Source: Agelas oroides (lineage: Eukaryota > Porifera > Demospongiae > Agelasida > Agelasidae). Taken from it: a DNA stretch of 64,000 nucleotides. The notes under the pieces were generated by a model, which had not been told where the DNA came from, made no database searches, and saw nothing but the letters and a program-made list of their open reading frames with translations. Both the position numbers and the translations under genes were made by a program. Below are positions 1-24,241 of the stretch, in pieces (position 1 is the first letter of the stretch; every line of letters begins with the position of its first letter). The stretch lies in contig OX422190.1 in NCBI GenBank assembly GCA_949130485.1, positions 8,214,167 to 8,278,166 on the forward strand. The letters run 5' to 3'.

Positions 1-248
1 CTCTCCAGAAATTTGACATATAAAGATCGTTCTTCGACACAATCCAGTATATAATCTACTCGTTTGTGTGTCAAGTTGCTGTGTAGATAACTGCGATCGT
101 CGGTCGTAAGCATGAATCGCTCTCGCATATGTGGCTCCAGTGCGTCCACATTGAGACAGTCTCTTATTGGTCGGCGATTTTGACAGAATCTTGAAGCGAT
201 AACTTTAGCACATAGCTCCGGGGCATTAGAACCGCTGAGTTTTGCCAT
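1..248 (-). CDS. CARD-CARD-TPR family protein, 5' part only (runs off window)
   Basis: The reverse strand is open from an ATG at 248 to the window edge, about 82 codons without a stop. The product matches the N-terminal CARD of the three complete paralogues in this window, including the LEPHMRERFMLTTDDRSYL stretch and the VEERSLYVKFLE stretch near the edge. Its own N-terminal tip (MAKLSGSNAPEL) differs from the others, so this is a separate gene. It is divergent (head to head) from the decayed copy at 713. A perfect TGACGTCA lies about 77 bp upstream of the ATG. No intron is seen. Whether the rest is intact cannot be judged because the gene continues beyond base 1. Confidence 0.75.
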   Translation of the reverse strand, partial: MAKLSGSNAPELCAKVIASRFCQNRRPIRDCLNVDALEPHMRERFMLTTDDRSYLHSNLTHKRVDYILDCVEERSLYVKFLE

Positions 249-249
249 A

Positions 250-712
250 GTATTGCAAAGGAAGGAGTACAGCTACATATCACATGACATCTACACAAGT
301 TTGTAATTGTTTACAACTTCAAAATGACGTCACAATAATTGCTGGATCGCTTGGGAATTTCGCTACTTTCGCAAAAATGCCTCCAAAGAAATTTTCGCGG
401 AACGCGAGCGGATCAAGCCACACCCCTACCAAAAGATAACCACGCCTCACGTGTGCAAACCTGGCACATCCAAGTCAGTCACAGTCAAAATCGACGACGA
501 CGAAGCGAAGAGCCAAGTTGCTACAACAGGAGATGGAAAAGAATCCACAGTCTTTAATTAAGAGAGGTTTCAATGTAGCCTGTTACGCATAGTATAGCAC
601 GGACGCCGAGTTACTGTGGTGTCTGCTCGTCTGCATTAGAAGCCTCCATTTATTAAACATTGTATACCTACATATGCCTTTGTAATACATGACTGTATAG
701 TGTTCTAGAGTC
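250..712. other. Divergent intergenic region between two CARD-family copies
   Basis: This is the shared upstream region of the minus-strand gene starting at 248 and the plus-strand remnant starting at 713. It holds the CRE-like site and, next to the ATG at 713, the stretch TATAGTGTTCTAG. That stretch is also found just upstream of the ATG of the gene at 9202, and in weaker form before the gene at 22700. I see no convincing coding sequence; the 72-codon plus-strand ORF at 339 shows no recognisable features. Confidence 0.4.
325..332. promoter_or_regulatory. CRE-like palindrome TGACGTCA
   Basis: A perfect 8-bp TGACGTCA lies between the divergent partial CARD gene (ATG at 248, minus) and the decayed copy (713, plus). 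The same palindrome lies upstream of the intact gene at 22700. TGACGTCA is the classical CREB/ATF target; that it is functional here is inference. Confidence 0.35.
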
Positions 713-1440
713 ATGGCAGCAAAATCCAGTAGGCCTAGCTGTATCTCCCGGGAACAGTTATCACTATATGCTGAAGTCATCGCTTCACGATTCCGTCTGA
801 ACGTCGACGTACTGGAGCCGCATATGCGAGAGCGATTCATGCTTACGACCGACAATCGGAGTTATAATTATCTACACAGCAACTTGACGCGCACACGAGT
901 AGATTATAGACTGGATTGTGTCGAAGAACGATCTTTATACGAGAGTGTGTAAAGTGAAACGACCCACATGGGGCATGTGTATGTGAAGGCTGTTCTGCAG
1001 GGCACATACTATTGCAGCGACGACCATGTTCACAAATCTGCCGATTTACGATGTAAGGTCGAAAGGAACCTGTCCAAAATCACGGACATTGATTTGCCGT
1101 TTCTTGTTCCATTCTTGTACAGGCAACTCCTTCTGATCAAAGCCGGATGAGACAGCGTTAGCCACTGCTAAGTCAGAAGTACAAAATCAAAATGTTTTAC
1201 AGTTCTTTGGAATTTTGGAGACGAAGGGGCCTCTATAGCTCACTTTAAATTTGTCCATTGTCTGTCACAAGAGAAATCGCATCCGGCTCATAGTGAGCTG
1301 TATAACCTACTTTGCCAAACAACTGATGATGAAGAATTGGCTCTATAGCAGTCTATGATAGCCCAACAAACAGAAATCCAAATAGACTGGTAATGGAAGG
1401 GACCTTGGTGCGCAGAAGGAGAAACAATCTTCTTTCCCGC
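713..1440 (+). pseudogene. Decayed CARD-CARD-TPR family copy
   Basis: The start matches the paralogues (MAAKSS, then IASRF, then LEPHMRERFMLTTD). Compared with the intact genes it has lost about 27 bp after IASRF and has an altered SYNYLHS region. About 12 bp are missing around YVKFLES, and a C-to-T change then turns the conserved CAA of VQSETT into a TAA stop at about 950. Homology resumes as SETTHMGHVYVKAVLQGTYY, then has a frameshift and stop near 1148. Further homologous pieces (KFVHCLSQ, SHPAHSELYNLLCQTTDDE) lie between stops, and similarity ends around 1440. The helical C-terminal half is absent. It is clearly a non-functional relic of the two-CARD region. Confidence 0.9.
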
Positions 1441-1675
1441 ACTCCATCGGCTATATAAGCCTAAACAGATGCACTTCCAATTTCATGAAATAGAAGTGTT
1501 TTCAAATGCCCGAGATGTGGGACAACATGGTATGCTGTGACTCCTGAAGAGTGGTATCACCTAAGTCACATAATATTGTTGTACTTGTATTCTGCTCTTC
1601 CAACATGCAAGTTAACTGAATTGAAGTGTCCAACATTTGTTTATTGCATGGTGATGGCAAAATTTATCAACACCA

Positions 1676-1850
1676 AAAAAATTCCATGGGGGTCCCCGAT
1701 TTCATGGAAGGGTCCCTAATATCATATGAAATTGGGGACCCCAGGGTCCCCAAAATATTAGGAAATTGGGGATCCGGGTCCCTTATTTCATATGAAAATG
1801 GGGACCCGGGGTCCCCATTTTGGGGGGTCCCCATTTTCACTTGACACCGG
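1676..1850. repeat. GGGGTCCCC palindrome tract A
   Basis: About 170 bp built from repeated GGGGTCCCC / GGGGACCCC palindromes separated by AT-rich spacers with the words CATATGAAAT and CCAAAAT, in both orientations. It lies downstream of the decayed CARD copy and about 800 bp before the intact gene at 2651. It could be a foldback transposon remnant or a cluster of protein-binding sites. Similar tracts occur at 2455-2615 and 9258-9343. Confidence 0.6.
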
Positions 1851-1960
1851 TACAGCCATGGCCGTCTAAATATGACAAGGCCTTCTTTGGACGTTTTCGA
1901 GTCTTCAAGCATCCAAAGTAGCGACGAGAGGATTGAGGCTTTCTCAATTTTCTATGGCGA

Positions 1961-2264
1961 TATTTGAGCGCGACGCGAAATTGGGGCGGGGCTAACATGC
2001 GCTCGCGCGAAATGCCCCTTTGAGGCGGTCATTTCAGGCAGCACGGTTCAATCGCTTCACTGGCTGCAGAAACTACAGGTGGGCAGATTCTAGTAGCATT
2101 TTTGTCCAAACATGGTCTCAGAAGCGATCTCAGAGTGCCTAATTAAAAAAAAAAATTCCTGGGGGAGCATGCCCCCAGACTCCCCTACCTTGTTCACACT
2201 TATGCATACTCTCATCCGTCACCAATGGCCGTATACCAGTTTAAAATAGCTGGCTCCGGCCCTG
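1961..2264. mobile_element. MITE fragment, same family as 4544-5128
   Basis: The segment from about 2105 to 2264 is clearly related to the right half of the element at 4544-5128. It shares the words GGTCTCAGAAGCGATCTCAGAG, the box CCTGGGGGAGCATGCCCCCAGAC, and a degenerate end GGCTCCGGCCCTG. The left part is more diverged and the boundary at 1961 is approximate. It contains no coding sequence. Confidence 0.55.
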
Positions 2265-2454
2265 ATCTTAGGTGCATCAATCTTAAATGCATACCAAATA
2301 GTGAAGAACAGTGGTTTTGTACTGCATGTAAGTAACTTATAAATAGCTGTTTCTTTTCCTTTTACTCTTTGATAGCATCAATGTTTATGATTGTAAACGA
2401 CATAGATGATGCAGTTAAGCCACAGCAGAACAGAAAAGTGTTATATAGGTAGGG

Positions 2455-2615
2455 CTCCCCATATCTACCATGGACATGGGGACCCCAAATTTATATAGGT
2501 AGGGGTCCCCAAATATGTGAAGGGGTCCCCACATCTATGTAGACATATCTATAATTATGATCATGGGCACCCGGGGTCCCCCAAAACGGGGGTCCCCAAA
2601 ATCGGGGTCCCCATA
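2455..2615. repeat. GGGGTCCCC palindrome tract B, directly upstream of CARD gene
   Basis: At least seven GGGGTCCCC-type palindromes occur in about 160 bp, ending about 35 bp before the ATG of the CARD gene at 2651. Spacer words (CCCCATATC, CCCCAAAT) recur. The position next to the start codon makes this a promoter candidate, but it may be an inserted foldback element. A TGTGACGTG word (half CRE) follows at about 2640. Confidence 0.55.
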
Positions 2616-2650
2616 TCCATATGACATGCACCGGGTCATGTGACGTGTGA

Positions 2651-4192
2651 TTGTCAATCATGGCAAAACGCAGCAGCTCCAACGTCCTGGATCTATGTCC
2701 CGCAGCCATCGCTTCACGGTTCGGTCAAAAGCGCCAACAAATACGAGACTGCCTTAACCTCGAGGTACTGGAGCCGCATATGCGAGAGCGACTCATGCTC
2801 ACTACCGATGATCGAGGTTATCTACGCGACAACTTGACTCGCAAACGAATGGATTATGTACTAGACCTCGTCGAAGAACGATCTTTATACGTAAAATTTC
2901 TGGAGAGTGTGCAAAGTGAAACGACCCACTTGGGGCATGGATATGTGAAGGCACTTCTGCAGGGCACTTACTATTGCAGCGATGAAGATCTTCACAAAGC
3001 TGCTGATATACGACATAAGGTTGAAAGTAACCTGTCCAGAATGATGGATATAGATTTGCCGTCCCTTGTTCCGTTCTTGTGCAGCCGATTTCTTCTGACA
3101 AAAGATGAGAAAACATTACTCACTACTAAATCAGAAGTGCAGAATCAAAACGTTTTACAGTTCTTTGACATTTTGGACACAAAGGGGCCTCTAGCCTACC
3201 TTAAGTTTGTTCAGTGTCTCTCTCAAGAGCTGTCGCATCCAGCTCATAATCAACTGTATGAATTGCTTTGTCAATCAACTGATGAGGAAGGATCAGCTCT
3301 AGCAGTCTGTGATGGTCCAACAAAGAGAACACCATATCGACTGGTGATGGAAGGAGCCCTGGCTCAAAAGAAATACAAACAACTCTTTGCCAAGATAAAG
3401 GAACATAAGTACAGTGGAAACTGGGTAGCTATGAAACGAGGAATAGGTGAGTGTATGCAAAGTGAGATCCCAGAAGTGCGTGTAGTTGGTCTGATTGAGG
3501 ATGCAATTAGCTGGCTGCTTCGTTGTTATGATACAAAAGCATTGATGATCATCAAGCAGGCGAAAGAACTATGTGAAACAGAAGTTAGTGAGAACAATGC
3601 TGTCTTTCTTAAAGCTCGGGCAGAGTACAATCTGTCAGGAATATACAGATACTTAAAACAAGACGACAAAGCACTTGAGTGTGCTGAAAAAGCCATGGTG
3701 CTTCTTTTCAACGCAGAGCCTGGAGAAGATTCTGCATACGCAAATTACAACCATGCTTCAGCTTGTATGCTTAAGAGTAACTCATCCAATGCAGCACAAA
3801 TAATGCTTGAATTCACTTTTGCGCTGGATATTGGACTAGTTGATCAGGCCACCTCTTGCAGTAGTAATAGGTGGTCCCAGATAGTTACAAGTAAATCATT
3901 GATTCGGCAAGCTATGCTTCTCCTCAACTCAAACAAGAACATTCCTGAAAAATCTCTACAAGAAAACATCACAAAAGCAAGCTCTTCTCTCTCAAAGTTG
4001 AATGTCTCATCTCTGAGTAACAGAATAAAGTGTCTATACTATCTGGCAGTGTCTGAGCTTCATGAACAAAGGGAAGAGGTGGATGGTGCCATTAAAGCAG
4101 CAACTCAAGCCCAGACAATAGCCACCAAGTGTGGCTTTGCCTCCTTACTGCACTCTACAAATGCTAAACTCCATTCTCTAATAAGTACTTAA
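2651..4192 (+). CDS. Intronless CARD-CARD-TPR-like protein, copy 2 (513 aa)
   Basis: A single open frame of 513 codons. Residues about 20-100 form a CARD-like death-fold domain, with LEPHMRERLMLTTDDRGYL, an RKRMDYVLDLVEERSLYVKF core and the closing LGHGYVKALLQG. Residues about 115-205 form a second CARD-like domain (FLLTKDE, then FFDILDTKGPLAYLKFVQCL, then HPAHNQLYELL). Residues about 230-510 are helical with TPR-like repeats, for example YRYLKQDDKALECAEKAM followed by DSAYANYNHASA. There is no signal peptide, membrane span, NACHT or helicase motif. CARDs act in innate-immune and cell-death signalling by homotypic pairing; an intracellular adaptor or sensor role is inference. The start is supported by alignment with the paralogues. 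It is tail to tail with copy 3 in an inverted duplication. Confidence 0.85.
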   Translation: MSIMAKRSSSNVLDLCPAAIASRFGQKRQQIRDCLNLEVLEPHMRERLMLTTDDRGYLRDNLTRKRMDYVLDLVEERSLYVKFLESVQSETTHLGHGYVKALLQGTYYCSDEDLHKAADIRHKVESNLSRMMDIDLPSLVPFLCSRFLLTKDEKTLLTTKSEVQNQNVLQFFDILDTKGPLAYLKFVQCLSQELSHPAHNQLYELLCQSTDEEGSALAVCDGPTKRTPYRLVMEGALAQKKYKQLFAKIKEHKYSGNWVAMKRGIGECMQSEIPEVRVVGLIEDAISWLLRCYDTKALMIIKQAKELCETEVSENNAVFLKARAEYNLSGIYRYLKQDDKALECAEKAMVLLFNAEPGEDSAYANYNHASACMLKSNSSNAAQIMLEFTFALDIGLVDQATSCSSNRWSQIVTSKSLIRQAMLLLNSNKNIPEKSLQENITKASSSLSKLNVSSLSNRIKCLYYLAVSELHEQREEVDGAIKAATQAQTIATKCGFASLLHSTNAKLHSLIST

Positions 4193-5821: not shown

Positions 5822-6666
5822 TATTTTTTTTTTGTTTTTTTTTTTTGTTTATAAAACTTTATGTCACATAGACAAGGGATACACGTAAATAGCAAGCTGC
5901 TAATACAAGACATGACCCCAAAAAATAATAACTACAACAGATAGGTTAAGACAAGACAAAACTACAAAGACAATGAGTAGTTCAAACTGTTTAAACTATT
6001 TCTAAAGGTGGCAAGTGAAGGAGCAGTGACAGTTGTAGGGTTTAAACTATTCCATAATGTAATAGTATGTGGAACAAATGAATAAAAATATGAGTTGGTA
6101 TGTGCAAAAGGGTGAGAATGTTCTAAAAACAAGGGATGAAATCTACGATGGCTACAAAATGTACTCAGAGCAAAAACACTACTATCAAAATAGCACAGGT
6201 TGTATATGATTCTGTATAAGAGACAGAGTCTAGCTTCCAATCTTCGGTGTTCTAGGGTGGGAAGGTCAACAAGCTCTAGCAGATCTTGATAACTGATATC
6301 CCAACTTCTGGTGGCCATATGGAGAGCAAATTTCTGAACGTTCTCCAGTAGTGTTTTGTCCTTTTTCATGTAAGGAGACCAGATAGATGCAGCATAATCA
6401 AGATGGGGCCTAACCAGAGAAAGATACAGCTGAAGCATTGTATTACCGGGTGCATGGTTATAGAATTGCCGGTAGAGGAGCCCTAGAATCTTTTTAGCCT
6501 TGGTACACGTAGACTGGACATGTTCACCCCAGGAGAGGTCATGTGACAAAAGAACACCAAGGTATTTGAATGTTTCAACTTTATCCAGGGGGTAGCCATC
6601 TAGCATGAGAGATGTTGGAGGAGTAGACACAGCTCTTCTGCGTGAGATGGTCATAAATTTCCCCAT
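5822..6666 (-). mobile_element. 5'-truncated non-LTR retrotransposon (LINE) 3' end
   Basis: The minus strand encodes 234 codons (6666-5962) typical of the region just after the reverse transcriptase core of Jockey/CR1-type ORF2. The markers are FKYLGVLLSHDLSWGEHV, KAKKILGLLYRQF, LYLSLVRPHLDYAASIWSPY and ENVQKFALHMATRSW, ending PHTITLWNSLN and a final FRNSLNSL. A run of A residues (T-rich on the plus strand at 5822-5852) marks the 3' tail. The catalytic core is missing, so this is a dead, 5'-truncated insertion. It sits at the centre of the inverted CARD duplication. Confidence 0.85.
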
Positions 6667-7310: not shown

Positions 7311-7344
7311 CACATACACACGCATGCACCATATACATCATAAC

Positions 7345-7672: not shown

Positions 7673-9202
7673 TTATAGAGAATGGAGTTTAGCATTCACC
7701 AAGTGAAGTAGGCAAGCAAAGCCATACTCATTGGCTAATGTCCGAGCATCACTTGCTGCTTTATTGGCACAGTCCACCTCTTCCCTTTGTGTATGGAGCT
7801 CAGACTCTGCTAGATAATATAAACACTTATTTCTGTTACTCAGAGATGGGACATTCATCTTTGAGAGAGAAGAGCTTGCTTTTGTGATGTTTTCTTGTCG
7901 AGTTCTATCAGTAATGCCAGCAACATTCTTGTTTGAGTCCAGGAGAAGCATCACTTGCTGAATCAATGACTTATCTGCCACTATCTGGGACCACTTATTG
8001 CTGCAGCAAGAAGCAGCCTGATCAACTAGACCAATGTCTACAGCAAAAGTGAATCCACGCATTATTTGTGCTGCATCAGATGGATTACCCTTAGCTAGTA
8101 AAGCACAAGCATGGTTGTAATTCGCATGTGCAGAATCTTCTCCTGGCTCTGTGTTGAAAAGTAGCACCATGGCTTTTTCAGCACACTTCAGTGCTTTGTC
8201 ATTTTGCTTGTATCTGTACATTGCTGATAGAATGTACTCTGCTCGAGCTTTAAGGAAGACAGCATTGTTCTCACTGACTTTTGTTTCGCATAGTTCTTTT
8301 GCCTCATCGATGCTCTCTAATACTTTAGCATCATTACAACGAATCACCCAACTAAATGCATTCTCAAGCAGACCAACTACACGCACTTCTGGGATCTCAC
8401 TGTGCATACACTGATCCACTCCTCGCTCCACAGCTATCCAGTCTCCATTGTACAGATCTTCCTTTACCCTGGCAAACAGTTGTTTGTATTTCTTTTTCAC
8501 CAGTGCCCCTCCCTTTACTAGTCGATTTGGTGTTCTCTTTGTTGGTCTATCGCAGACTGCTAGAGCCAATTCATCAGTTGTTTGGCAAAGTAGTTTATAC
8601 AGCTCACTATGAGCTGGATGTGACGTCTCTTGAGAGAGACAATGAACAAACTTCAAGTAGGCTAGAGGCCCCTTTGTGTCCAAAATGTCAAAGAGCTGTA
8701 AAACGTTTTGATTCTGTATGGCTTCTGTACTAGCAGTGACTAAAGTTCTCTCATCTTTTGTCAGAAGGAATTGACTGGCCAAGAGTGGAGCAAGAGACGG
8801 CAAATCTATGTCCATCATTCTGACCAGGTTGCTTTCAACCTTGAGTCGTAACTTGGCAGATTTGTGAAGATCGTCTTCGCTGCAATAGTAAGTGCCCTGC
8901 AGAAGTGCCTTCACATATCCATGCCCCAAGTGGGTCGTTTCACTTTGCACACTCTCCAGAAATTTTACGTATAAAGATCGTTCTTCGACGAGGTCTAGTA
9001 CATAATCCACTCGTTTGCGAGTCAAGTGGTCGCGTAGATAACCTCGATCGTCGGTCGTAAGCATGAATCGCTCTCGCATATGCGGCTCCAGTGCGTCGAC
9101 TTTGAGATAGTCTCTTATTTGTCGGCGATTTCGACAGAACCGTGAAGCGATGACTTCAGGCTCAGCACTAGCTGAGTTACAGCTACTGGATTTCGCTGCC
9201 AT
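7673..9202 (-). CDS. Intronless CARD-CARD-TPR-like protein, copy 3 (509 aa)
   Basis: A single open frame of 509 codons reading leftwards from ATG at 9202 to a stop at 7673. It has the same order as copies 2 and 4: first CARD-like domain about residues 20-100 (LEPHMRERFMLTTDDRGYL through LGHGYVKALLQG), second about 115-205 (FLLTKDERTLV, LFDILDTKGPLAYLKFVHCL, HPAHSELYKLL), then TPR-like helices (YRYKQNDKALKCAEKAM, DSAHANYNHACALL). Two residues are missing in the acidic linker (DELALAVCD against DEEGSALAVCD). It has an ITDRTRQENITKASSSL segment shared with copy 4 but shorter in copy 2. It is convergent with copy 2. The tract of GGGG/CCCC palindromes lies 70-140 bp upstream. Function is inferred only from domain type. 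Confidence 0.85.
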   Translation of the reverse strand: MAAKSSSCNSASAEPEVIASRFCRNRRQIRDYLKVDALEPHMRERFMLTTDDRGYLRDHLTRKRVDYVLDLVEERSLYVKFLESVQSETTHLGHGYVKALLQGTYYCSEDDLHKSAKLRLKVESNLVRMMDIDLPSLAPLLASQFLLTKDERTLVTASTEAIQNQNVLQLFDILDTKGPLAYLKFVHCLSQETSHPAHSELYKLLCQTTDELALAVCDRPTKRTPNRLVKGGALVKKKYKQLFARVKEDLYNGDWIAVERGVDQCMHSEIPEVRVVGLLENAFSWVIRCNDAKVLESIDEAKELCETKVSENNAVFLKARAEYILSAMYRYKQNDKALKCAEKAMVLLFNTEPGEDSAHANYNHACALLAKGNPSDAAQIMRGFTFAVDIGLVDQAASCCSNKWSQIVADKSLIQQVMLLLDSNKNVAGITDRTRQENITKASSSLSKMNVPSLSNRNKCLYYLAESELHTQREEVDCANKAASDARTLANEYGFACLLHLVNAKLHSL

Positions 9203-9257
9203 GAGTCCTAGAACACTATATGGTCAAGATAATTCATACCTACGGAAGGTACATGGA

Positions 9258-14100: not shown

Positions 14101-17100
14101 CCCCCTCCCTCTCTCCCTCTCCCTCCCCCCCCCCCCTTACTCCCCCTTCCCTCCCTTCCTCTCCCTCCCTCTTCCCTCCCTTCCTCTCTCTCCCTCTTCC
14201 TCCCTCCCGCCCCTCTCCCCCTCCCTCTCTCCCTCCCCTCCCCCCTTACTCCCCCTTCCCTCCCTTCCTCTCCCTCCCTCTTCCCTCCCTTCCTCTCTCT
14301 CCCTCTTCCTCCCTCCTGCCCCTCTCCCCCTCCCTCTCTCCCTCTCCCTCCCCCCCCTCCCACCAGGATATATATGCTATTGTGATGGAGTATATCACCA
14401 CTGAACATTTCTCCCTCCTCAATACGGTGGATGACATATCTGTGTGGACACTCACAGACGTGAAGGTGTGTATATTTATAATGGTGATCAAGTTTACAGA
14501 TACTGTAAAGTTTCTAATATAGGCACCCCTCAATAATTTCAGTGCTGGAAGGCACTTTTTATTAGAACAAAAAAAATTCCACAATGGTCAAAGGGCGCTT
14601 TATAATTGGAGTGGCACCTGGCACATGTATTAGAACAGAAAAGGACCACACGTGTGAAGTTGCTGACAGGAGTTGTCTATGGCAGGCTCTGAAGATGAGT
14701 GAAGCTGTTGTTAGCTACCATGTCTACAAAGACGTACTGGTGCTTCAAGAATCAGTTGGCATTGACAAAAGTTGACAACTAACACTTCAACTATCACATT
14801 TATGTTTTAATGTAGACATCTACCGTAGATCGGGAAATTTTTACAAATATTTTCGTCAGTGCGCGGGAGCGACAAAAATTAAACGCGTGAAAATAAAATA
14901 TACGTATACACGCTACATTGCAGAACCGGCGAGCGACAAAAATTTAAGACGCGAATTATTTTTACCGTGAAAATTTCCCGATCTACGGTAAATTAGGAAA
15001 TTTTTGTTGGTGTGACAAAAATGAAGTGTACCTAAAATTAACTGCATGTATGTGTACATGCTACATTTGTACATTGCGGACACAACAAAGTATTTTCTTT
15101 GCTTCATTCTCAGCTACTGCCAGCTGCTCAGTCACATAATGGCTGTTCAGTCACATGCTGTACATTATGTCTGTTCAGTCACATGCTGTACATTATGGCT
15201 GTTCAGTCACATGCTGTACATTATGTCTGTTCAGTCACATACTGTACATTATGGCTGCTCAGTCACATACTGTACATTATGTCTGTTCAGTCACATACTG
15301 TACATTATGGCTGCTCAGTCACATAATGGCTGTTCTGTCACATGCTGTACATTATGGCTGTTCAGTCACATGCTGTACATTATGTCTGTTCAGTCACATG
15401 CTGTACATTATGGCTGTTCAGTCACATGCTGTACATTATGTCTGTTCAGTCACATGCTGTACATTATGGCTGTTCAGTCACATGCTGTACATTATGTCTG
15501 TTCAGTCACATACTGTACATTATGGCTGCTCAGTCACATACTGTACATTATGTCTGTTCAGTCACATACTGTACATTATGGCTGCTCAGTCACATAATGG
15601 CTGTTCTGTCACATGCTGTACATTATGGCTGTTCAGTCACATGCTGTACATTATGTCTGTTCAGTCACATACTGTACATTATGGCTGCTCAGTCACATAA
15701 TGGCTGTTCTGTCACATGCTGTACATTATGTCTGTTCAGTCACGTATAGTCTCGTGACCAGCCGGAAAAACCTACGGAAAATCCGTCTGGTAACGTTGGG
15801 CTCGATTCTGGGGCTTTTCTACTTACGACGGAGTTATTTGAACGTGCCAATCAAATTGTAGTATGTCCAATTATTCGGGCGGCCCACTGGCGCCCTAGCG
15901 CTTGTGCGGATGCTAATTGGTGATAATTGAAGCCATGTAGAGGTGAGAACTTCCATGTATGGTCAGAGCCGGCTGTGTTCAAACCCTGCTGACGTGTGCA
16001 AAAGCCCAAGAAAGGCGCGCAATGTTACCAGACGGATTTTCCGTAGGTTACATCCGGCTGGGCACGAGACTAAGTCACATACTGTACATTATGGCTGTTC
16101 AGTCACATAATGGCTGCTCAGTCACATGCTGTACATTATGGCTGTTCAGTCACATACTGTACATTATGGCTGTTCAGTCACATACTGTACATTATGTCTG
16201 TTCAGTCACATGCTGTACACATTATGTCTGTTCAGTCACATGCTGTACATTATGTCTGTTCAGTCACATAATGGCTGTTCAGTCACATAATGGCTGCTCA
16301 GTCACATGCTATACTAGTCTATCAAGCCAGTGCTTTTCTGGAGGGTGAGAGATGGTCTGGCTTGATAGACTAATGCATGGCTAGTATTTCATAATGTGAA
16401 GATTTTTTTGCAAGCAAATTTTTCAATCTATGTCATTTAGGCCAGAATGTGTTGTTACATGAACTTGTCTAGGCTGTTGTGAAGAAAGGCTTAAGAACTC
16501 CATTGTTTAGACATGAGATTCTTTCATATGAAAGTACATCACCATAGCAACTTACACAATGTTTATTCATTCTTAGCCACATTTTACTGTGTCTGGCCTT
16601 ACCTATATATAGCATTGTTCCCAGGCCTTCCCACCATTCAGTTTTTGATTGAGGGGGGGGGGGAGGATTCCTAGGTAGACAGAGTGGGGGAGGGGTCCCC
16701 TATCGAAAGAACAAGCTTGAGGCCTTATCTTGTAATTTCTGCCTTCAAGCACTTCAAACGTTTGAGACACGAAAAATGTACCCCTCCTGGTTCAATATGA
16801 AGACCTCGTGCACGAAATGCGTTCTTTGATCGGGGATCCCTCCCCTCCTCTGTCTACCTAGGTAGACACTGACGTCATTCAGGTGATAAAATGGACCAGG
16901 CCTTCCCACTCCATTTTTGCATACTGCAAAAACTTGATGGTGGGAAGGCCTGGGAATGAGGCTAATCTATATAATGGCTGTGCTTGAAAAACCAATGAAC
17001 CTCTCATTGTCAAACACAGGCCTAGAGCAGGACATGTTTTGGCCAATACCAGGCCTTAGCAGCTTCGCTGGGGTGACTGGGAGATGGGGAGGCAGTCAGA

Positions 17101-17327: not shown

Positions 17328-17380
<53 letters not shown>

Positions 17381-20300
17381 TTTGTGTTTGCGTGTGCATT
17401 TGTGGGTTTTGTGTGTACATTTGTGTGTGTGTGTGAGAAAATCTCCCTCCTTCTCTCCCTCTCTTCATAACCAGTCACAGTGCCTAATACACTATACCAC
17501 CTGTGTGTAGAGTGTATGTTTGTGATGTGTAATTGTCTTCCTCTTTCCCTCCCTCCCTGCCTTACTCCCTGTCTCCCTGCCTCCTACCCACTCTCCCTCC
17601 CTTCCTCTTTCCCTCCCTCCCTCCTTCCTTTCCCTTCCCTTCCCCCTCCCTCACATACCGTCACAGAGCCAGGGTTGTCAATCAAGCAATCACCATCCTC
17701 CCCAAGATGTGGCAGATTTTAGACTCCTCTCCAAAAACCATGACACACAACGACTGCAGCCCTCGTAACATCTGTTTGAGAAGCCCCAGGCCTACCTCGG
17801 CCATTGACGTACTCCAGACTGGTGAACCATTGTCGACCCCTGCCATCCATAGCACCCCCTCACCCGCTACCACGGTATGTACATGCCCATCATGTAGTCC
17901 CCTTTCTGGTCTCATCTCTCTAAACCCCACCTTCTCACAATGAAACAGTCTGGCTCACAAAGTTTGATTTTGTTGGTGTCTGGGAAGGAACTACAGCGGA
18001 CACCCACGATATAACGGACAATTCTGAAAGTCCCGACTGTCCTTCCATTCCCTGAATAGCGGACACCCCGCTACTCCGTATAACGGACAGTTTTTGCGGT
18101 CCCAATTGTACACAAACAATACTCAACGACCCCGATTTAGCGGACACTCATTGAACTTTTCAGCAAAATTGTCACTGCAACTTGACATTAGATTAGCGTT
18201 GTTACTCATAATACTAGCCTCTGGTTAGCCTTCCCTGCCAGCGTACAGCAAAGGAAAGCTCTGAAAATGCAGCCACGTTGTGCTCAACAGCTCGATTACA
18301 CATACCAAGCCTACCGGAAATATACCGGAAGCCCCTGAGTTAGGGACACCCCGCTATAAGAGACAAAAATATTGGTTCCCAATGGTGTCCATTATAGAGG
18401 GGTTCCACTGTAGACACATACTCAATCCCACCCTCATACAAGAAAGAGACGCTCTTAATGCACCAAGCACAAATTTTGGGCTAGCATGTGCTCCGTACAT
18501 AGGTCTGATCATTGTAAGTTGTAACCAAGCAACATTAAAATGTTTTCGACTTATATGCTAAAGAACCATTACCCAAGTAGAGATACATATACCTTATTAC
18601 ATGAGTTAGCATGCAATATCGCGAGTTATTGCACGAGTGGGCATGGTATTTTCACAAGCCGAAGGTGAGTGAAAATGCAGCCCACGAGTGCAATAACCGC
18701 AATATGCACGCTAACCAGTGTATTTTTTATCCATTACCACAACAGCGTCGTGTCTCTTCTCACACAAAGTACCGAGTAACTTGCCGTTCGAACGCACCGG
18801 TTCTAATTAAAGCACATTGTGGTTGCTAGGATACCACATAGCCCCGGGCCGTGGAATAACACCCGTACAATATTGTGTGATATTGCACGGCACGGGAATA
18901 GGAAAGACTGTTGTAGAAATATCAACTGCATAATAAAAAAACGTTACTGTTGTGATGGAAGTGTGGTCAAGGCACCAGTCAGGATTCCTCATGGTGCTTG
19001 CACAGCCATGCTGATTGACTCCTGTGTAATAAATAATGATCTCGCAATATTACATTCTTCGGTCCCAGACCCAAAACCAACCCCAGCGTGGAAGTGATAT
19101 ACGTGCCAGATGAGGTCTGAGGACGAGACTAATTCTAGGAATGAGCCCAAGAGATTTGACTTGGTGTACCAGATCATTTCCTGGCTGTAAGTAGGTCTGG
19201 ACATGAGACTACTGTGTTCCCAGGCCACTCCCAAATTTATGCTCACACCCTTGTGGAGAAATTGGATAACATTTGAGAATGGCCAGGGAACAAGGCTCTT
19301 GAGCATGCTATGTTCGTGTTATTGTCCGCGTAGACATTCATCATGCATTACTACTAACCTTAATCCTGGGCCTTCCCCACTTACAGTATACAACTTACAT
19401 GTATATTAACAATATCAAAGTACATCATGAGTCCTTTCCATTCTCAAGTGTTTGGGAAAGGCCTGTAAACAAGACTAATTCATTCCATGTACTGTCAATT
19501 GCAGTTGTGTTAAAATTTTCACGAATTCATAATGTGTTCTGCTTGCAAGGTAACTCACTGTGACAATATGAATGGTCGTATAATGGTAGCTCATGGTGGT
19601 TCATTTGTCTTCACCGGAAATCAGGCTAGGCGGCTTATGTACATGTGCCATAGATGTGTTACTTTGCATGCAGTACACAGCATCACGGATGTACAGAAAT
19701 TTCGAACACAACTGTAATCTAGTATTCTGGGGAATAAGGGCTGGATACAGTGAAAATAAACCAAACCCAAACCGAAAGTATACACTGGAATTCAACAATT
19801 CATTGGGCCTGAAAAGACTTACATTTGTACATGGAGTGTTTTGTTTATTCACCAAAAGTGCACTTTCACTTTCACACTGGCCAGGACTGCTTTTTGCTGC
19901 TTGTACACTTGTTATTCTTGCATGAGCTTCAAGAGGAGTTGGGGGAGGCAGGGAGGTTAAAGGTTGGGGGGGGGGGTTGGGATAAAGGGAAGTGTTTTGG
20001 GGATGGGATACACGGGTGGGGTTGCTGAATTTTTATTGAGCATAGGTTTTACCACACATAACATGTAATGTGTGGGAAATGTCACTAAATTGTGTTCTCA
20101 GTAAATTGTGTTCTACCTTAGAGGGGGGGGATGAAGAGTAAACGGTTGATGTATGGTAGCCAGGGATTTATTGTCACTTTACCATCCAAGTCAAGTCTGA
20201 GGACAACGCCTGTGAATAACAGTTGGTTTGTGTGTATATTAGACTTCTTTATAAGTACTATGAAGCCACCAGTAGTATATTGGATACATACTTGCTAGCC

Positions 20301-22008
20301 ATTGTTGACAGCTCCCAATACTACCACACAACTATCGTCTCTTGCTATCAGAAATGGTTCATTAAATTTGCACACACTCAGTTTATGTAATGTTGTGAGA
20401 GCGCCCACACACCTGGTTTTACTCAGCACATTCAGCAGTGTTAATTAATCCTACTACAGCTGTTGTACTACATGGTTCTTTCCCACTGTAGCTTTCCAGA
20501 CCTTAAAAGGAGTCTTTTTAGTGAAATGAAATTTTAATGAATGCCTGTTTATGTGCATGGGATGTCCTGTTCTCATGACTTAAGTAAACTTAGCTATGAT
20601 AGCACATGCTGAGTGTGCAAGCTAGAGAACTGGTAGGTGGGCAAAAGAGCATAAATCAGTATGCTTTTTTTAAAGTCCTCCCTTTCCCTACCCTTCTACT
20701 TCCCTCCCCTCCCCCTCCCTCCCCCTTCCCCCTCCCCTCCCCTCTCCTCCCCTCCTCTCTTTCTTTCCTTCTCTTTCCCTCCCCCCTTCTCCCCTCTTCT
20801 CCCCTCCCCTCCCCTCCCCTCTCCCTCGCTTTCCTTCTTCAAGGCTGAACACAAATTAGCAAGGAATACCCATGGCCCACATATATAGGCTGTATAGCAT
20901 GGGTATAAGTAGCCTCATTTCTTGGCTCCTTTCCAGCTGTTGTACAAACACCATTTTTTGTGTGACAATAACTTGGGGCAGGAATGAATCTAGTAAGACA
21001 AGCTCTTCCATGTCACACTCATGCCATCTGCAGGCTCCTACAGCACATTTATCAACTAGTGGTGTGGAGCAGTTTACTCCCTTTGCCGACCTCCGCACTC
21101 TATGCATATATGATTGGGAGCTAGCGACAGTCAATGTACCACAACATGACGTAGCAGAGTTCCTAGCATTCACTCTACAGCCCTCGACCCCACTCACGAC
21201 TCGACTGGAATTGGTGGAATTTTATTGGCAACATCTGCAGTACTACTCTGGGAGGGAGTACCCTTGGAAACAGTAAGCATATTTACATGCAACCTCTGTC
21301 TTTATGATCAACCCAGCAGTACTGTTGTTCTTCCAGAAAGCCATGGCAGTCATTGTGAATGTACATTTATTGAACCTCATGTGTTTGAACTGGGAGGGTG
21401 TTATTATAGGTTCACTATTATAAATGTGTTAAATGAAGGCTTATTCTTAGTTTCGTCCCCAGACCCTACACTCTCATGTGGACAAACGGTCTGGTGAACC
21501 AAGTTGAATTTCTTGGGCTAATGTATGCTCTTGTGACAGTGTAACCTAGCGACATTTTGTGCTAGACCTGCTCAAAAAGGTACGTAAGTGGAGGTAAAAA
21601 CGTTTTCTGCTGTAAGGGAAGTGTGAAGTAATAATTACCTATCTCGCAATGTCATTGGAGCTTACGAATAAGCCCAAGAAATTCGACTTCGTTCACCAGA
21701 CTGTTTCTCGCCGGGAGGCGTGTGCGGGCTGGGCATGAGACTAGCTTATTCTCTCCTCTTTCCCTTCTCTCCTCCTCCTCTCCAACCCCCTTCTTTCCTC
21801 CTCCTCTTTCATTCCCTTCTCTCCTCTCAGGTTTATCTCAGTCTATGATCTGGCGTGTCTGGATGTTGCGATGTATCGACTTATGATGTACACATTGGTA
21901 CATGGTTATGAGGGCTGTCACTGTCCTTTCCTCCCCCGAGTGGTCCAATCACACTTCAGTTACATCATGGATCAAATTGCTGCTGGCGGCTTTAGCCTAC
22001 TCAAATGA
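11148..22008 (+). CDS. Nine-exon phosphotransferase (APH/choline-kinase-like fold), 445 aa
   Basis: Exons by splice and phase matching: 11148-11243, 12777-12876, 13144-13282, 13668-13767, 14367-14465, 17151-17329, 17667-17874, 21034-21272, 21831-22008. They total 1338 nt, in frame throughout. Kinase-like landmarks appear in order: LNVVLKSKP (candidate nucleotide-binding lysine), IYAIVMEYI (hinge), THNDCSPRNICL (the HxDxxxxN catalytic loop of aminoglycoside/choline kinases) and LCIYDWELATVNVPQHDVAEFL (metal-binding aspartate followed by the typical DvAeFL). No signal peptide is seen, so it is presumably cytosolic. The substrate is unknown; family members phosphorylate small hydroxylated molecules. 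Introns 3, 4, 7 and 8 end in very long pyrimidine tracts. The acceptor of exon 8 (21034) is the least certain junction, because an in-frame reading continues upstream. A TTG in frame at 11070 is not used because ATG 11148 precedes the family-like start. Confidence 0.8.
12100..12573. mobile_element. Putative MITE with TACC..GGTA ends (intron 1)
   Basis: The left end TACCGTAAAGTCTGGTTATT and the inverse of the right end, TACCCTCGACTCTGGTTAAT, are similar inverted repeats within intron 1 of the phosphotransferase. The element holds several TTATTAGGCGCAT-type words near both ends. A TA target duplication (mariner-like) is possible. ORFs inside it show no known domain. Confidence 0.6.
13035..13132. 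repeat. CA microsatellite
   Basis: An imperfect (CA)n run with CGCA and TGCA interruptions in intron 2, just before exon 3. The His/Thr-rich frames across it are artefacts. Confidence 0.95.
13370..13662. repeat. Pyrimidine-rich tandem repeat in intron 3
   Basis: About 290 bp of CCCTCC/CTTCTCC units on the sense strand, ending at the acceptor of exon 4 (13668). It is a very extended polypyrimidine tract. Confidence 0.9.
13850..14362. repeat. Homopyrimidine tandem array in intron 4
   Basis: About 500 bp of almost pure C/T made of roughly 115-bp units that recur about four times. Each has a TTACTCCCCCTTCCCTCC start and a CTCCCGCCCCTC or CTCCTGCCCCTC middle. It abuts the acceptor of exon 5 at 14367. 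The Pro/Ser/Leu-rich and Gly/Arg/Glu-rich frames here are not genes. Confidence 0.95.
14821..14990. mobile_element. Mariner-like MITE, 170 bp (intron 5)
   Basis: The ends are TACCGTAGATCGGGAAATTT and its near-perfect inverse, beginning and ending in TA as expected for a Tc1/mariner-type TA target. GCGACAAAAATT words are repeated inside. A related fragment lies at about 32700-32790 (GATCGGGAAATTTTTAGG). Confidence 0.8.
15120..16315. repeat. 28-bp minisatellite array, interrupted by a MITE
   Basis: The unit is about 28 bp with the core CAGTCACATGCTGTACATTA followed by TGNCTGTT, repeated about 20 times at 15120-15746 and resuming at 16073-16315. Shorter units with CAGTCACATAATGGCTG are interspersed. 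Long ORFs across it come from the 84-bp (3 x 28) period and are artefacts. The interruption at 15747-16072 is a foldback transposon. Confidence 0.95.
15747..16072. mobile_element. Foldback MITE inserted in the minisatellite
   Basis: A 326-bp element. The left end TAGTCTCGTGACCAGCCGG leads into CCTACGGAAAATCCGTCTGG, mirrored by CCAGACGGATTTTCCGTAGG and CCGGCTGGGCACGAGACTA. It is flanked by AGTCACGTA (15738-15746) and AGTCACATA (16073-16081), a 9-bp target duplication with one mismatch, both copies derived from the satellite unit. No coding sequence. Confidence 0.85.
16612..16970. mobile_element. Foldback MITE (TTCCCAGGCCTTCCCACC family)
   Basis: The left arm TAGCATTGTTCCCAGGCCTT, then CCCACCATTCA, is mirrored by GGTGGGAAGGCCTGGGAATGAGGCTA at about 16935-16965. 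An inner arm pair with CCTAGGTAGACAGAG lies at 16670 and 16855. It lies in intron 5 of the phosphotransferase gene. CTATATA words flank both sides. Confidence 0.75.
17328..17435. repeat. TG microsatellite after exon 6
   Basis: A (TG)n run that begins inside the donor site of exon 6 (AGAG then GTGTGTG). This is a striking case of a splice donor embedded in a microsatellite. Confidence 0.95.
17994..18410. mobile_element. Pogo/mariner-like MITE, 417 bp (intron 7)
   Basis: The left end TACAGCGGACACCC and the right end GGGGTTCCACTGTA form CAG..CTG-type inverted repeats flanked by TA on both sides. The internal words ATATAACGGACA and TATAACGGACAG are typical of this kind of element. There is no transposase. 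Confidence 0.7.
18598..18725. mobile_element. Small foldback element (intron 7)
   Basis: GTTAGCATGCAATATCGCGA followed by GTTATTGCACGAGTGGGC is mirrored by GCCCACGAGTGCAATAAC, then CGCAATATGCACGCTAAC. This is a hairpin of about 120 bp. Probably a MITE remnant. Confidence 0.55.
20690..20840. repeat. C/T-rich low-complexity tract (intron 7)
   Basis: About 150 bp of CCCTCCCC-type sequence on the sense strand, about 190 bp before exon 8. Confidence 0.9.
21448..21743. mobile_element. Foldback MITE with 9-bp target duplication (intron 8)
   Basis: A 296-bp element. The left end TAGTTTCGTCCCCAGACC is mirrored by a right end ending GGGCATGAGACTA. The inner pair is GGTCTGGTGAACCAAGTTGA against TTCGACTTCGTTCACCAGAC. 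It is flanked by GCTTATTCT at 21439-21447 and 21744-21752, a perfect 9-bp duplication. A longer relative lies at 47229-47714. Confidence 0.85.
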
Positions 22009-22699
22009 AGTGTCCCCTAAAGTAGACCGTAAAAGTTTTGTATGTCTTTGTAGTGTTCCTCCCATCATCTGACTTCAATACAACATTTTTAGACCACTCA
22101 TCTAAGAGAGAGTTATAGATTTTATGGTGGTATTTCTTTCTTTTATTTTTACATCTGTTCTTTTTATGACATTTTTACTCTTTTCAGCTCACTAAAATCT
22201 GTCTGAATATGGTTGTTCATTATTTCCCAGCTGATGAACTTATGTGCCAATACAGCAACCTCATACCCATGCCGTTTGTGCTAGTATGTTGCGGTAGAAC
22301 ATGCAGTGGGGACTCTGAAGGATGCCAAGTTCCCCCCCAAAATTAGCCTCATTCCCAGGCTCTCTTTACGAGTGACAGAATGCTGCATGAGGGTCAAGTT
22401 CATCCTGGTATAATATATGTACTCTTGTGTTCTAGTTCCCTCATACGTATGTATATATATATGAGCCAAGGTGGTAGCCTGGGAGGAGGCTATAGGCGAC
22501 AAGGACCAACCTCTTCAGCATTGGCATTGCATCATGCTCTTGACAGTGTTGCATCATACATGATAGTTGTTGTTGATTAGTTATGTAATGTTGCATCGCA
22601 GGCTCATAATTGTGACGTCATTTCCAAGTGTGTAATAAACAAAGAAGACTGTAGTTAAGTCTGGCCAGCGAGACAATGTAGTGCCCAGTTCTAGAACTA
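22009..22699. other. 3' region of phosphotransferase gene and 5' region of CARD copy 4
   Basis: Holds the presumed 3' UTR, a solo foldback end at about 22346 (TTAGCCTCATTCCCAGGC), and the promoter region of the next CARD gene with a CRE palindrome at 22613. No gene. Confidence 0.4.
22613..22620. promoter_or_regulatory. CRE-like palindrome TGACGTCA upstream of CARD copy 4
   Basis: A perfect TGACGTCA 80 bp before the ATG at 22700, the same distance class as the one before the partial gene at 248. The recurrence makes it a plausible shared element of the family. Confidence 0.4.
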
Positions 22700-24241
22700 A
22701 TGGCCAGCAGCTGTAACTCCTCGGGACAGTTATCAGTAAGTGCTGAAACCATCGTTTCACGGTTCAGTCAAAATCGCCGACAAATAAGAGACTGTCTCAA
22801 TGTCGACGCACTGGAGCCGCATATGCGAGAGCGATTCATGCTTACGACCGACGATCGCAGTTATCTACGCGACCACTTGACTCGCAAACGAGTGGATTAT
22901 ATACTAGACCTCGTCGAAGAACGATCTTTATACGTAAAATTCCTGGAGAGTGTGCAAAGTGAAACGACCCACTTGGGGCATGGATATGTGAAGGCACTTC
23001 TGCAGGGCACTTACTATTGCAGCGAAGACGATCTTCACAAAGCTGCTGATATACGACGTAAGGTTGAAAGCAACCTGGTCAGAATGATGGACATAGATTT
23101 GCCGTCCCTTGCTCCACTCTTGGCCAGTCAGTTCCTTCTGACAAAAGATGAAAGAACTTTAGTCACTCCAAAGTCAGAAGTGCAGAATCAAAACACTTTA
23201 CAGTTCTTCGACATTTTGGAAACAAAGGGACCTTTAGCCTACCTTAAGTTTGTTTACTGTCTCTCGCAAGAGGTGTCGCATCCAGCTCATAATCAACTGT
23301 ATGAACTACTTTGTCAAACAACTGATGAGGAAGGATCAGCTCTAGCAGTCTGTGATGGTCCAACAAAGAGAACACCAAATCGACTGATGATGGAAGGAGC
23401 CCTGGCTCAAAAGAAATACAAACAACTCTTTGCAGAGATAAAGAAAGATCTGTATAGTGGAGACTGGGTCGCTGTGGAGCAAGGAATTGATGAGTGTATG
23501 CAAAGTGAGATCCCAGATGTGTGTGTAGTTGGTCTGCTTGAAAATGCGATTAGTTGGGTATTTCGTTGTGAGGATGAAAAAGTTTTCACAATCATCAAGC
23601 AGGCTGAAGAACTATGTGAAAAGGAAGTTAGTGGAAGCAATGCTGTGTTTCTTAAAGCTCGAGCGAAATATATTGTATCAGGATTCTACAGACACTTGAA
23701 GCAAAATCACAAAGCACTTGAGTATGCTGAACAAGCCATGGTGCTGCTCTTTAATGCAGAACCAGGAGAGGATTCTGCATATGCAAATTACAATCACGCT
23801 TGTGCTCTAGCAGCTAAGAGTAATCCATCAGCTGCAGCACAAATAATGTGTGAATTCACATTTGCTGTCGATGTTGGTCTGAATGATCAGACTACCTCTT
23901 GCTGCAGCAATAAGTGGTCCCAAATAGTGGCAAATCAGTCATTGATTCGGCAAGCAATGCTTCTCCTGGACTCAAACAAGAACGTTACTGACAAAACTCG
24001 ACAAGATAACATCACAAAAGCAAGCTCTTCTTTAACAAAGGTGGATATCACATCGCTGAGTAACAGAATAAAGTGCTTATACCATCTTGCAGAATCTGAG
24101 CTCCATGCACACAGGGAAGAAGTGGACAGTGCCATTAAATTGGCAAATGAAGCCTTGAGATTAGCAACCACATGTGGCTTTGATCGCCAACGTCACTCAG
24201 CAAATGCTAAACTACAATCGCTAGTGAGTCCTCAGGCTTGA
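22700..24241 (+). CDS. Intronless CARD-CARD-TPR-like protein, copy 4 (513 aa)
   Basis: A single open frame of 513 codons. The first CARD-like domain is at residues about 25-104 (LEPHMRERFMLTTDDRSYL, RVDYILDLVEERSLYVKF, HLGHGYVKALLQG). The second is at about 117-205 (LLASQFLLTKDERTLV, FFDILETKGPLAYLKFVYCL, HPAHNQLYELL). A linker with GPTKRTPNRLMMEGALAQKK follows, then helices to about 505 with TPR-like pairs (FYRHLKQNHKALEYAEQAM, DSAYANYNHACALAAK). It lies 0.7 kb after the phosphotransferase gene and away from the other copies, so the family is dispersed over at least 24 kb. The N-terminal 35 residues before the conserved core vary most between copies. Function is inferred only from domains. 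Confidence 0.85.
   Translation: MASSCNSSGQLSVSAETIVSRFSQNRRQIRDCLNVDALEPHMRERFMLTTDDRSYLRDHLTRKRVDYILDLVEERSLYVKFLESVQSETTHLGHGYVKALLQGTYYCSEDDLHKAADIRRKVESNLVRMMDIDLPSLAPLLASQFLLTKDERTLVTPKSEVQNQNTLQFFDILETKGPLAYLKFVYCLSQEVSHPAHNQLYELLCQTTDEEGSALAVCDGPTKRTPNRLMMEGALAQKKYKQLFAEIKKDLYSGDWVAVEQGIDECMQSEIPDVCVVGLLENAISWVFRCEDEKVFTIIKQAEELCEKEVSGSNAVFLKARAKYIVSGFYRHLKQNHKALEYAEQAMVLLFNAEPGEDSAYANYNHACALAAKSNPSAAAQIMCEFTFAVDVGLNDQTTSCCSNKWSQIVANQSLIRQAMLLLDSNKNVTDKTRQDNITKASSSLTKVDITSLSNRIKCLYHLAESELHAHREEVDSAIKLANEALRLATTCGFDRQRHSANAKLQSLVSPQA

What the first reader, a model, noticed from the sequence alone, without database searches (positions are those of the whole stretch)
1..24241. Cluster of intronless two-CARD plus TPR-like genes: a candidate undescribed immune or cell-death gene family
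Three intact genes, one partial gene and one pseudogene encode the same unusual order: two tandem CARD-like domains, then about 280 residues of TPR-like helices. There is no NACHT, helicase, caspase or kinase module. Tandem CARDs are known from RIG-I-like and NOD2-like receptors, and a pure CARD-CARD-TPR protein would be a different design. All copies are single-exon while the neighbouring genes have 9-12 exons.
Basis: partly seen in the sequence, partly recalled or inferred. Interest (0 to 1): 0.85.

Follow-up and report, generated by a model that had tools for sequence, protein, structure and literature searches.

The report
Sponge tandem-CARD plus TPR gene family
An animal genome that looks like a freshwater sponge carries a dispersed family of one-exon genes whose proteins join two cell-death signalling domains (CARDs) to a helical-repeat (TPR) region, a combination we did not find described and which may be an unrecorded kind of internal danger sensor or adaptor.

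Summary
Three intact ORFs (2660-4192 +, 7673-9202 -, 22700-24241 +) encode CARD-CARD-TPR proteins. The "partial" edge gene is intact outside the window (560 aa); 713-1410 is a decayed copy. The same genome holds at least 15 open one-ORF members on 8 contigs, 26-34% identical to gene A outside the C8 group, including a C22 array with a four-CARD member. Both CARDs are supported separately: 14-member profiles match solved CARDs (CARD11, CARD9, APAF1, caspase-9), and Pfam CARD hits 14 of 14 aligned members. TPR support is real but weaker. No NACHT, NB-ARC, helicase, kinase or caspase match was found in the aligned members. Position-one CARDs form one clade and 13 of 14 position-two CARDs another, so the tandem is probably older than the radiation. 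High-scoring CARDs elsewhere include those beside NACHT ORFs. Best reading: cytosolic sensor/adaptor, TPR input, tandem-CARD output; function is inferred. Side finding: a short inverted-repeat element has captured about 205 bp of this gene's start and spread to five places. The genome is most likely a freshwater sponge.

The parts
22700..24241 (+). Gene A, intact CARD-CARD-TPR ORF, 513 aa
   Evidence: ORF; Pfam CARD E 1.4e-5, above the curated cut-off; own-genome paralogues
22745..23017 (+). CARD1 of gene A (residues 16-106)
   Evidence: profile A3 of 14 members matches solved CARD11 E 2.2e-9, CARD9 1.9e-7, APAF1 7.3e-7
23033..23329 (+). CARD2 of gene A (residues 112-210)
   Evidence: profile A4 of 14 members matches CARD11 E 2.7e-6, APAF1 1.7e-4, CARD8 2.4e-4, caspase-9 3.4e-4; Pfam CARD best stretch 126-196
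23363..24238 (+). TPR-like module of gene A (residues 222-513)
   Evidence: Pfam TPR_12 in 6 of 14 members at E 0.01 or better, best 9.6e-6; profile A5 matches a chain named CTPR-rv4 at E 4e-6
2660..4192 (+). Gene B, intact CARD-CARD-TPR ORF, 510 aa
   Evidence: (CARD 21.2 bits, below the 23.9 cut-off)
7673..9202 (-). Gene C, intact CARD-CARD-TPR ORF, 509 aa
   Evidence: (CARD 20.1 bits, below the 23.9 cut-off)
1..248 (-). First 82 codons of gene D, which continues intact outside the window (560 aa; has a strongly hydrophobic C-terminal stretch)
713..1410 (+). Decayed copy, CARD region only, interrupted by stops
22613..22620 (+). TGACGTCA (CRE-like, motif and label recalled) 87 bp upstream of gene A; also 84 bp upstream of gene D. 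A match to one of the three octamers sought lies at -391 and -335 of the C3 and C18 members; none in the 400 bp upstream of B, C or the other nine
   Evidence: no chance control was run and function is not tested

Best explanation
A lineage-expanded family of cytosolic signalling proteins without a nucleotide-binding switch. The C-terminal TPR module receives the input (a ligand, a modified host protein or a partner chaperone) and holds the two N-terminal CARDs inactive. When relieved, the tandem CARDs act as a nucleus for CARD-CARD assembly and recruit other CARD proteins of the cell: CARD-NACHT NLRs, CARD-NB-ARC proteins or CARD caspases. In plain terms it would work like the 2CARD unit of RIG-I/MDA5 or NOD2 (recalled), with TPR in the place of the helicase or NACHT-LRR part. 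Shown by sequence: the architecture, the number and spread of genes, purifying selection, longer shared runs in the CARD part of the C8 copies, and related CARDs beside NACHT and NB-ARC ORFs in the same genome. Inferred: the age of the tandem, gene conversion, autoinhibition, the ligand, CARD oligomerisation, the partner, and the immune or cell-death outcome.
For: Both CARDs match solved CARDs on their own profiles: all 24 chains with E below 0.001 for CARD2 are CARD proteins by name, and 27 of 28 for CARD1 (the other is a de novo designed protein). Pfam CARD in 14 of 14 aligned members, best E 4.3e-15. The 14 CARD1s form one clade (98/92) and 13 of 14 CARD2s group elsewhere (94/94). The 937-aa member repeats the CARD1-CARD2 unit twice before one TPR module, as expected if CARD valency matters. 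Lone-CARD ORFs on C21, each followed on the same strand by a NACHT plus NOD2_WH ORF, score 67.5 and 62.3 bits against the family's CARD2 profile. 14 of 15 open members have no strongly hydrophobic segment (19-residue mean at most 1.37), so they look soluble. The CARD region is more alike between the C8 copies than the TPR region, with long shared runs (B-C residues 65-107, p 0.0005; A-D 124-144, p 0.0015; C-D 152-170, p 0.004; six pairs tested), which fits a shared output and a diversified input.
Against: No functional, expression or interaction data. A profile of A, B and C alone found no CARD in the PDB (one match, Exportin-1, E 0.72); the CARD matches need the wider family. dN/dS of the TPR part is 0.28-0.52, so there is no sign of the positive selection often seen in recognition surfaces. 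Autoinhibition is not tested. Pfam TPR stays below the curated cut-off in A, B, C and in every relative tabulated singly. On the tree the C21, C11 and other single CARDs are not placed as sisters of the family, and one CARD2 (C2 member) falls among them, so kinship with NLR CARDs rests on profile scores only. No structure could be predicted.
Confidence: 0.42

Rival explanations
1. Adaptor or scaffold rather than sensor: the TPR module docks constitutively to a partner (chaperone, receptor tail or NLR) and the CARDs bridge it to caspases or kinases, as BCL10/CARD9/CARD11 do.
For: The top solved match for both CARDs is CARD11, with CARD9 and APAF1 next or near; no input domain other than TPR was found; the TPR module is also found without CARD in four ORFs, three of them with an N-terminal hydrophobic segment, so it may be a general docking module.
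Against: 15 or more strongly diverged copies seems more than an adaptor needs (a judgement, not a test).
Confidence: 0.3
2. Decoy or brake: CARD proteins without an effector domain that cap CARD filaments of NLRs, like the CARD-only proteins ICEBERG, COP and INCA (recalled).
For: No effector domain; both CARD profiles also match ICEBERG (E 5.7e-4, 4e-4), though less well than activators.
Against: Tandem CARDs in known proteins are activators (recalled); a large conserved TPR module is not needed for capping.
Confidence: 0.12
3. NLR remnants: CARD-NB-ARC-TPR receptors that lost the NB-ARC part by retroposition or deletion, then multiplied.
For: The genome has CARD ORFs followed by NB-ARC ORFs on C12 and C22; two of the four NB-ARC ORFs scanned match TPR_12, below its cut-off. 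Placozoan NLRs combine CARD with NB-ARC and TPR (PMC6321704, passages).
Against: The family's TPR profile finds no match at E up to 1 in the C12 and C22 loci (those ORFs are cut at the locus ends), and the C12/C22 CARDs form their own clade away from CARD1 and CARD2 (97/93). No run of 10 or more A within 600 bp downstream of the 15 members, so no recent retrocopy signature.
Confidence: 0.1
4. Developmental or apoptotic regulators of sponge cells, not immunity.
For: APAF1 CARDs are among the best matches, and an NB-ARC ORF preceded by an ORF with two CARD matches lies on C6.
Against: Multiplication and array structure are more typical of immune families (recalled); not decisive.
Confidence: 0.06

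Closest known systems
RIG-I-like receptors and NOD2 (tandem CARD receptors)
   Same: Two CARDs in tandem at the N terminus followed by a large input module (recalled)
   Different: No helicase, NACHT or LRR found by Pfam; TPR-like module instead
CARD-NACHT NLR-type genes of this genome (CARD ORF C21:6816359-6816769 with NACHT ORF C21:6814376-6816151; CARD ORF C21:6832055-6832450 with NACHT ORF C21:6830077-6831876)
   Same: Related CARDs: 58.8 and 50.0 bits to the CARD1 profile, 67.5 and 62.3 to the CARD2 profile
   Different: One CARD, CARD and NACHT on separate ORFs (that they are exons of one gene is inferred), NACHT and NOD2_WH present
CARD-NB-ARC-TPR type NLRs (placozoa; also C12 and C22 of this genome)
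   Same: CARD plus TPR together
   Different: NB-ARC present; no match of the family's TPR profile in the fetched NB-ARC ORFs; CARDs in another clade
CARD9/CARD11/BCL10 adaptors
   Same: CARD11 is the best matching solved CARD for both profiles
   Different: Those carry coiled coils, MAGUK or Ser/Thr-rich tails, not TPR, and one CARD (recalled)
IFIT proteins
   Same: Cytosolic TPR proteins in expanded families, with one main coding exon (recalled)
   Different: IFITs have no CARD (recalled); profile match to IFIT5 is not significant (E 0.38)
TRADD-N (NCOA6 clade) proteins, PMC8195603 section 10 (read)
   Same: Amphimedon expansion with 1-3 death-fold domains followed by a variable C terminus; in the oyster C. 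gigas some DED-TRADD-N proteins end in a cGAS-like domain followed by TPRs, so death fold plus TPR without a STAND NTPase is known
   Different: No TRADD-N match here; the section does not name a TPR C terminus for the sponge set; DED rather than CARD in the oyster case

Membership tests
CARD superfamily | Death-fold CARD detectable by profile | tested here: met
   Pfam CARD 14 of 14 aligned members at E 0.01 or better; both CARD profiles match solved CARDs; the three-sequence profile did not
CARD superfamily | Six-helix bundle structure | not testable with these tools
   Structure prediction switched off
NLR | NACHT or NB-ARC NTPase domain | tested here: not met
   None in A, B, C at E up to 10; none among the five families found in 14 members at E 0.01; none in the four-CARD member at E 0.1
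RIG-I-like receptor | DExD/H helicase and C-terminal RNA-binding domain | tested here: not met
TPR proteins | Tetratricopeptide repeats | tested here: inconclusive
   TPR_12 in 6 of 14; 27.2 bits in the four-CARD member, below the 30.1 cut-off; CTPR-rv4 chain E 4e-6. At least one or two repeats supported, the whole 280 residues inferred
MAVS-like tail-anchored CARD protein | C-terminal transmembrane anchor | tested here: not met
   14 of 15 open members lack it; only gene D has a 19-residue stretch of mean hydropathy 3.04 near the C terminus
Amphimedon-type TRADD-N proteins | TRADD-N domain after the death-fold domains | tested here: inconclusive
   No TRADD-N family, but whether the NCOA6-type domain has a Pfam model was not checked
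Tandem-CARD signalling proteins | CARDs that oligomerise with partner CARDs | not testable with these tools
   needs biochemistry

The most novel reading that the evidence does not exclude
A separate class of intracellular receptor in early-branching animals: CARD-CARD-TPR proteins sense danger without any NTPase or helicase switch, with one TPR module re-used behind two CARDs, four CARDs, one CARD, or a transmembrane segment, so that the same input can be wired to different outputs; at least one copy (gene D) may be tail-anchored to a membrane in the manner of MAVS.
Probability: 0.25. Interest if true: 0.82.

Novelty: new variant of a known kind. Interest (0 to 1): 0.6.

Why it matters
Tandem CARDs are known as output units of virus- and bacteria-sensing receptors that use a helicase or a NACHT-type NTPase as switch (recalled). 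A dispersed sponge family that couples tandem CARDs straight to a TPR module would be a simpler wiring and would give a concrete, testable set of genes for how early animals linked sensing to death-fold signalling. It also warns that CARD counts by Pfam cut-off miss copies: B and C score below it.

Tried and rejected
Prokaryote and viral origin: no relative confirmed in viral contigs or genome contigs (17 and 68 pattern matches, none confirmed by tblastn). Local duplication only: rejected, members lie on eight contigs. Recent retrocopies: no run of 10 or more A within 600 bp downstream of 15 members, and members outside C8 are 26-34% identical to gene A, so a single recent wave is excluded; an ancient intron-less founder remains possible. 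Derivation of the TPR part from the NB-ARC-TPR genes: no profile match, but those ORFs are cut by locus ends. Recent CARD1/CARD2 duplication: the two profiles are clearly related (hhalign E 3e-21), but CARD1s form one clade and 13 of 14 CARD2s another, with other CARDs of the genome between them, so the pair is old and need not be an internal duplication. Gene D's hydrophobic tail: 6 of 621 open 50-aa stretches of the window reach the same hydropathy and one member in 15 has it, so it may be accidental. A profile of A, B and C alone gave no CARD in the PDB. The NACHT and caspase maps and a third family query were not obtained because the genome search stayed busy. Of the 52 CARD places, eleven were never fetched, so partner CARDs were sampled, not surveyed. 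Species: the largest contigs (C1-C5: 32.7, 26.2, 19.4, 12.6, 11.7 Mb; no match lay on a contig numbered above C23) resemble the 23 chromosomes of Spongilla lacustris (31.1, 22.2, 17.8, 13.6, 11.3 Mb; PMC12141999, abstract, outline and section 6 read), but 259.3 Mb in 141 contigs is not that assembly (248.7 Mb, 70 scaffolds); freshwater sponge is an inference.
Full report
What is there. The window has three intact ORFs of 509-513 codons at 2660-4192 (+), 7673-9202 (-) and 22700-24241 (+). Their proteins are about 74-76% identical. A fourth copy starts at window position 248 on the minus strand and runs off the window; the whole genome shows that it is intact (C8:8212732-8214414, 560 aa). A fifth copy, 713-1410 (+), is decayed: three in-frame stops in residues 4-215 and no TPR part. 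Among the four intact copies whole-gene dN/dS is 0.28-0.48.

A genome-wide family. A search of the genome in which the window lies (259.3 Mb, 141 contigs; window = C8:8214167-8278166) gave 32 matches to the 513-aa protein. Reading the loci gives 15 single-ORF members, open from a methionine to a stop, on eight contigs: four on C8, five on C22 (four of them in an array at 1524789-1535362), and one each on C19, C13, C23, C3, C2 and C18. The C13 member matches gene A only up to residue 462, so its end may be damaged. Outside the C8 group identity to gene A is 26-34% (14 of the 15 aligned, the four-CARD member left out). A second query (the C2 member) gave 42 matches and no further full-length member, but more fragments and relatives; both searches score only the best candidates, so counts are lower bounds. 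One C22 member (937 aa) has the order CARD1-CARD2-CARD1-CARD2-TPR. A C21 locus is split into two frames (C21:1981727-1983227), and its neighbour has one CARD plus the TPR module (L071). Four further ORFs (C4, C3:3274350, C14, C10) carry the TPR module with no CARD match in the ORF; three of them have a hydrophobic segment before it (19-residue mean 2.18-2.65). Exons upstream of these four were not examined.

Are the domains real? Yes for the CARDs. Pfam CARD is over the curated cut-off in gene A and below it in B and C, but it is found in 14 of 14 aligned members at E 0.01 or better and reaches E 1.3e-28 in the four-CARD member. A profile of A, B and C alone found no CARD in the PDB; profiles of 14 members do. 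CARD1 matches CARD11 (E 2.2e-9), CARD9 and APAF1; CARD2 matches CARD11 (2.7e-6), APAF1, CARD8 and caspase-9. The two profiles are related to each other. On a midpoint-rooted tree of 47 CARDs from this genome the 14 CARD1s form a clade (98/92) and 13 of 14 CARD2s group on another branch (94/94) that also holds the very long-branched single CARD of L071; the C2 member's CARD2 and the NLR-type CARDs are not resolved. For the C-terminal region the support is weaker: TPR_12 in 6 of 14 members, the CTPR-rv4 chain at E 4e-6, and an insignificant match to IFIT5 (E 0.38). Structure prediction was off, so the folds remain inferred from sequence.

No other module. In A, B and C only CARD, atypical CARD and TPR/ARM-type repeat families appear up to E 10, and in the 14 members only CARD and TPR families at E 0.01. 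In the four-CARD member a RING/U-box model (zf-RING_14) scores 21.4 bits, below its cut-off, over the junction of its first CARD1 and CARD2.

Exons. All 15 members are one ORF. Because they were recognised as ORFs, this is partly a selection effect; a six-frame search would also show exon-sized pieces of intron-bearing members, and the partial matches it showed were lone CARD ORFs, fragments inside a mobile element, TPR-only ORFs, the decayed copy and the split C21 locus. No acceptor-like tract of the pattern used was found in the 150 bp upstream of the 15 start codons and no run of 10 or more A within 600 bp downstream. A 5'-UTR intron is not excluded, and gene D has a donor-like GTAAGT shortly before its stop codon (sequence printed). 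The exon numbers of the neighbours were not tested.

Evolution. CARD-coding parts are more alike between the C8 copies (amino-acid identity 77-96%) than TPR parts (69-76%). Runs of shared variable sites longer than in shuffles were found for B-C (residues 65-107, p 0.0005), A-D (124-144, p 0.0015) and C-D (152-170, p 0.004) out of six pairs; A-B, B-D and A-C gave 0.040, 0.059 and 0.052. This points to gene conversion in the CARD part, and synonymous divergence of A and C in CARD1 is only 0.036 against 0.443 in the TPR part, although stronger constraint would also lengthen runs. The TPR part keeps dN/dS at 0.28-0.52 (0.81 for C-D over the last 113 residues), so there is no evidence of positive selection.

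Possible partners. Among the ORFs of 34 fetched loci searched with the family's CARD2 profile, the highest single-domain scores are a C21 CARD beside a NACHT plus NOD2_WH ORF (67.5 bits), a C11 CARD (63.3; its only larger neighbouring ORF scanned has no Pfam match) and a second C21 CARD beside a NACHT ORF (62.3). CARDs beside NB-ARC ORFs lie on C12 and C22; a C6 NB-ARC ORF has two CARD matches before it; two C21 ORFs pair a CARD with a sub-threshold DED match. Of the 52 CARD places found by Pfam eleven were never fetched, and the caspase and NACHT maps could not be made, so partners are candidates only.

How it most likely works. I favour a cytosolic sensor/adaptor in which the TPR module controls two CARDs that seed assembly with other CARD proteins. 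Steps shown: domains, copy number, lack of a hydrophobic segment in 14 of 15 members, and presence of candidate CARD partners. Steps inferred: age of the tandem, inhibition by TPR, the ligand, CARD assembly and the immune outcome.

What is known. Searches for 'CARD-TPR', 'TPR-CARD' and 'CARD-CARD-TPR' found no paper. Searches joining sponge or cnidarian terms with CARD and TPR words listed papers on NLRs, placozoan immunity and TRADD-N expansions among others (listings); one other search found none and one listed six papers that by title concern other subjects, mostly RIG-I-type sensing. In the passages read, animal TPR-bearing immune proteins come with an NTPase: PMC6321704, PMC4083563, PMC12909245 (NACHT-TPR) and PMC11797021 (NACHT with TPR). 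PMC8195603 (section 10 read; passages) describes sponge proteins with 1-3 death-fold domains before TRADD-N, and oyster DED-TRADD-N proteins that end in a cGAS-like domain and TPRs, the nearest death-fold plus TPR case without a STAND NTPase that I met. PMC7385117 (Ephydatia genome; term counts and passages) has no occurrence of CARD or NLR in its main text. The library holds open-access papers only and no eukaryote protein set was searchable, so 'undescribed' is provisional.

Side finding. Five dispersed copies of a 522-576 bp element with inverted ends of about 28 bp, bordered by TA, carry about 205 bp of the start of this gene (from about 12 bp before the ATG to residue 64; 83-84% identical to gene A). 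Other copies share only the ends: in the 13 full-size ones fetched the interior is a different sequence common to them, in one (L035) only in part, and one further copy of 314 bp is shorter. This is a transposable element that captured a piece of an immune-type gene, of the kind called Pack-type (name recalled). One paper search for such elements in sponges listed seven papers, none on this by title.

Verdict. Observation confirmed and enlarged; interpretation partly supported; new variant of a known kind.

Noticed in passing
own genome: L025:873-1438 (C2:3004672-3005237) and copies on C3, C9, C1, C12: Short inverted-repeat element bordered by TA that has captured about 205 bp of the CARD1 gene start; five copies with the gene fragment, while other copies of the same element have another interior.
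   Followed up: partly
C8:8212732-8214414 (window 1-248 is its start): Gene D alone ends in a strongly hydrophobic segment (mean hydropathy 3.04) with a short tail, like a tail anchor, and has a donor-like GTAAGT near its stop codon.
   Followed up: partly
L068, L069, L022, L070 (C3, C14, C4, C10): ORFs with the same TPR module but no CARD match; three have an N-terminal hydrophobic segment and a middle region without Pfam match.
   Followed up: partly
window 37707-39128 (-) and 40510-41451 (-): Two neighbouring one-ORF genes, 85% identical in DNA over 866 bp, for cysteine-rich proteins with signal-like starts, the longer with a hydrophobic C terminus (by eye); only a sub-threshold stanniocalcin match to the longer one.
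   Followed up: no
window 5962-6666 (-): ORF resembling the C-terminal part of a non-LTR retrotransposon reverse transcriptase (reading recalled; no Pfam match).
   Followed up: no
C6:8632391-8634902: NB-ARC ORF preceded on the same strand by an ORF with two CARD matches, an APAF1-like order.
   Followed up: no
C11:1479971-1547439: Series of lone CARD ORFs related to the family's CARD2; in the one locus read (L072) the only larger ORF scanned, 196 aa, had no Pfam match and smaller exons were not scanned.
   Followed up: partly
window 15123-16314: Long tandem-repeat tract that gives overlapping repetitive ORFs.
   Followed up: no
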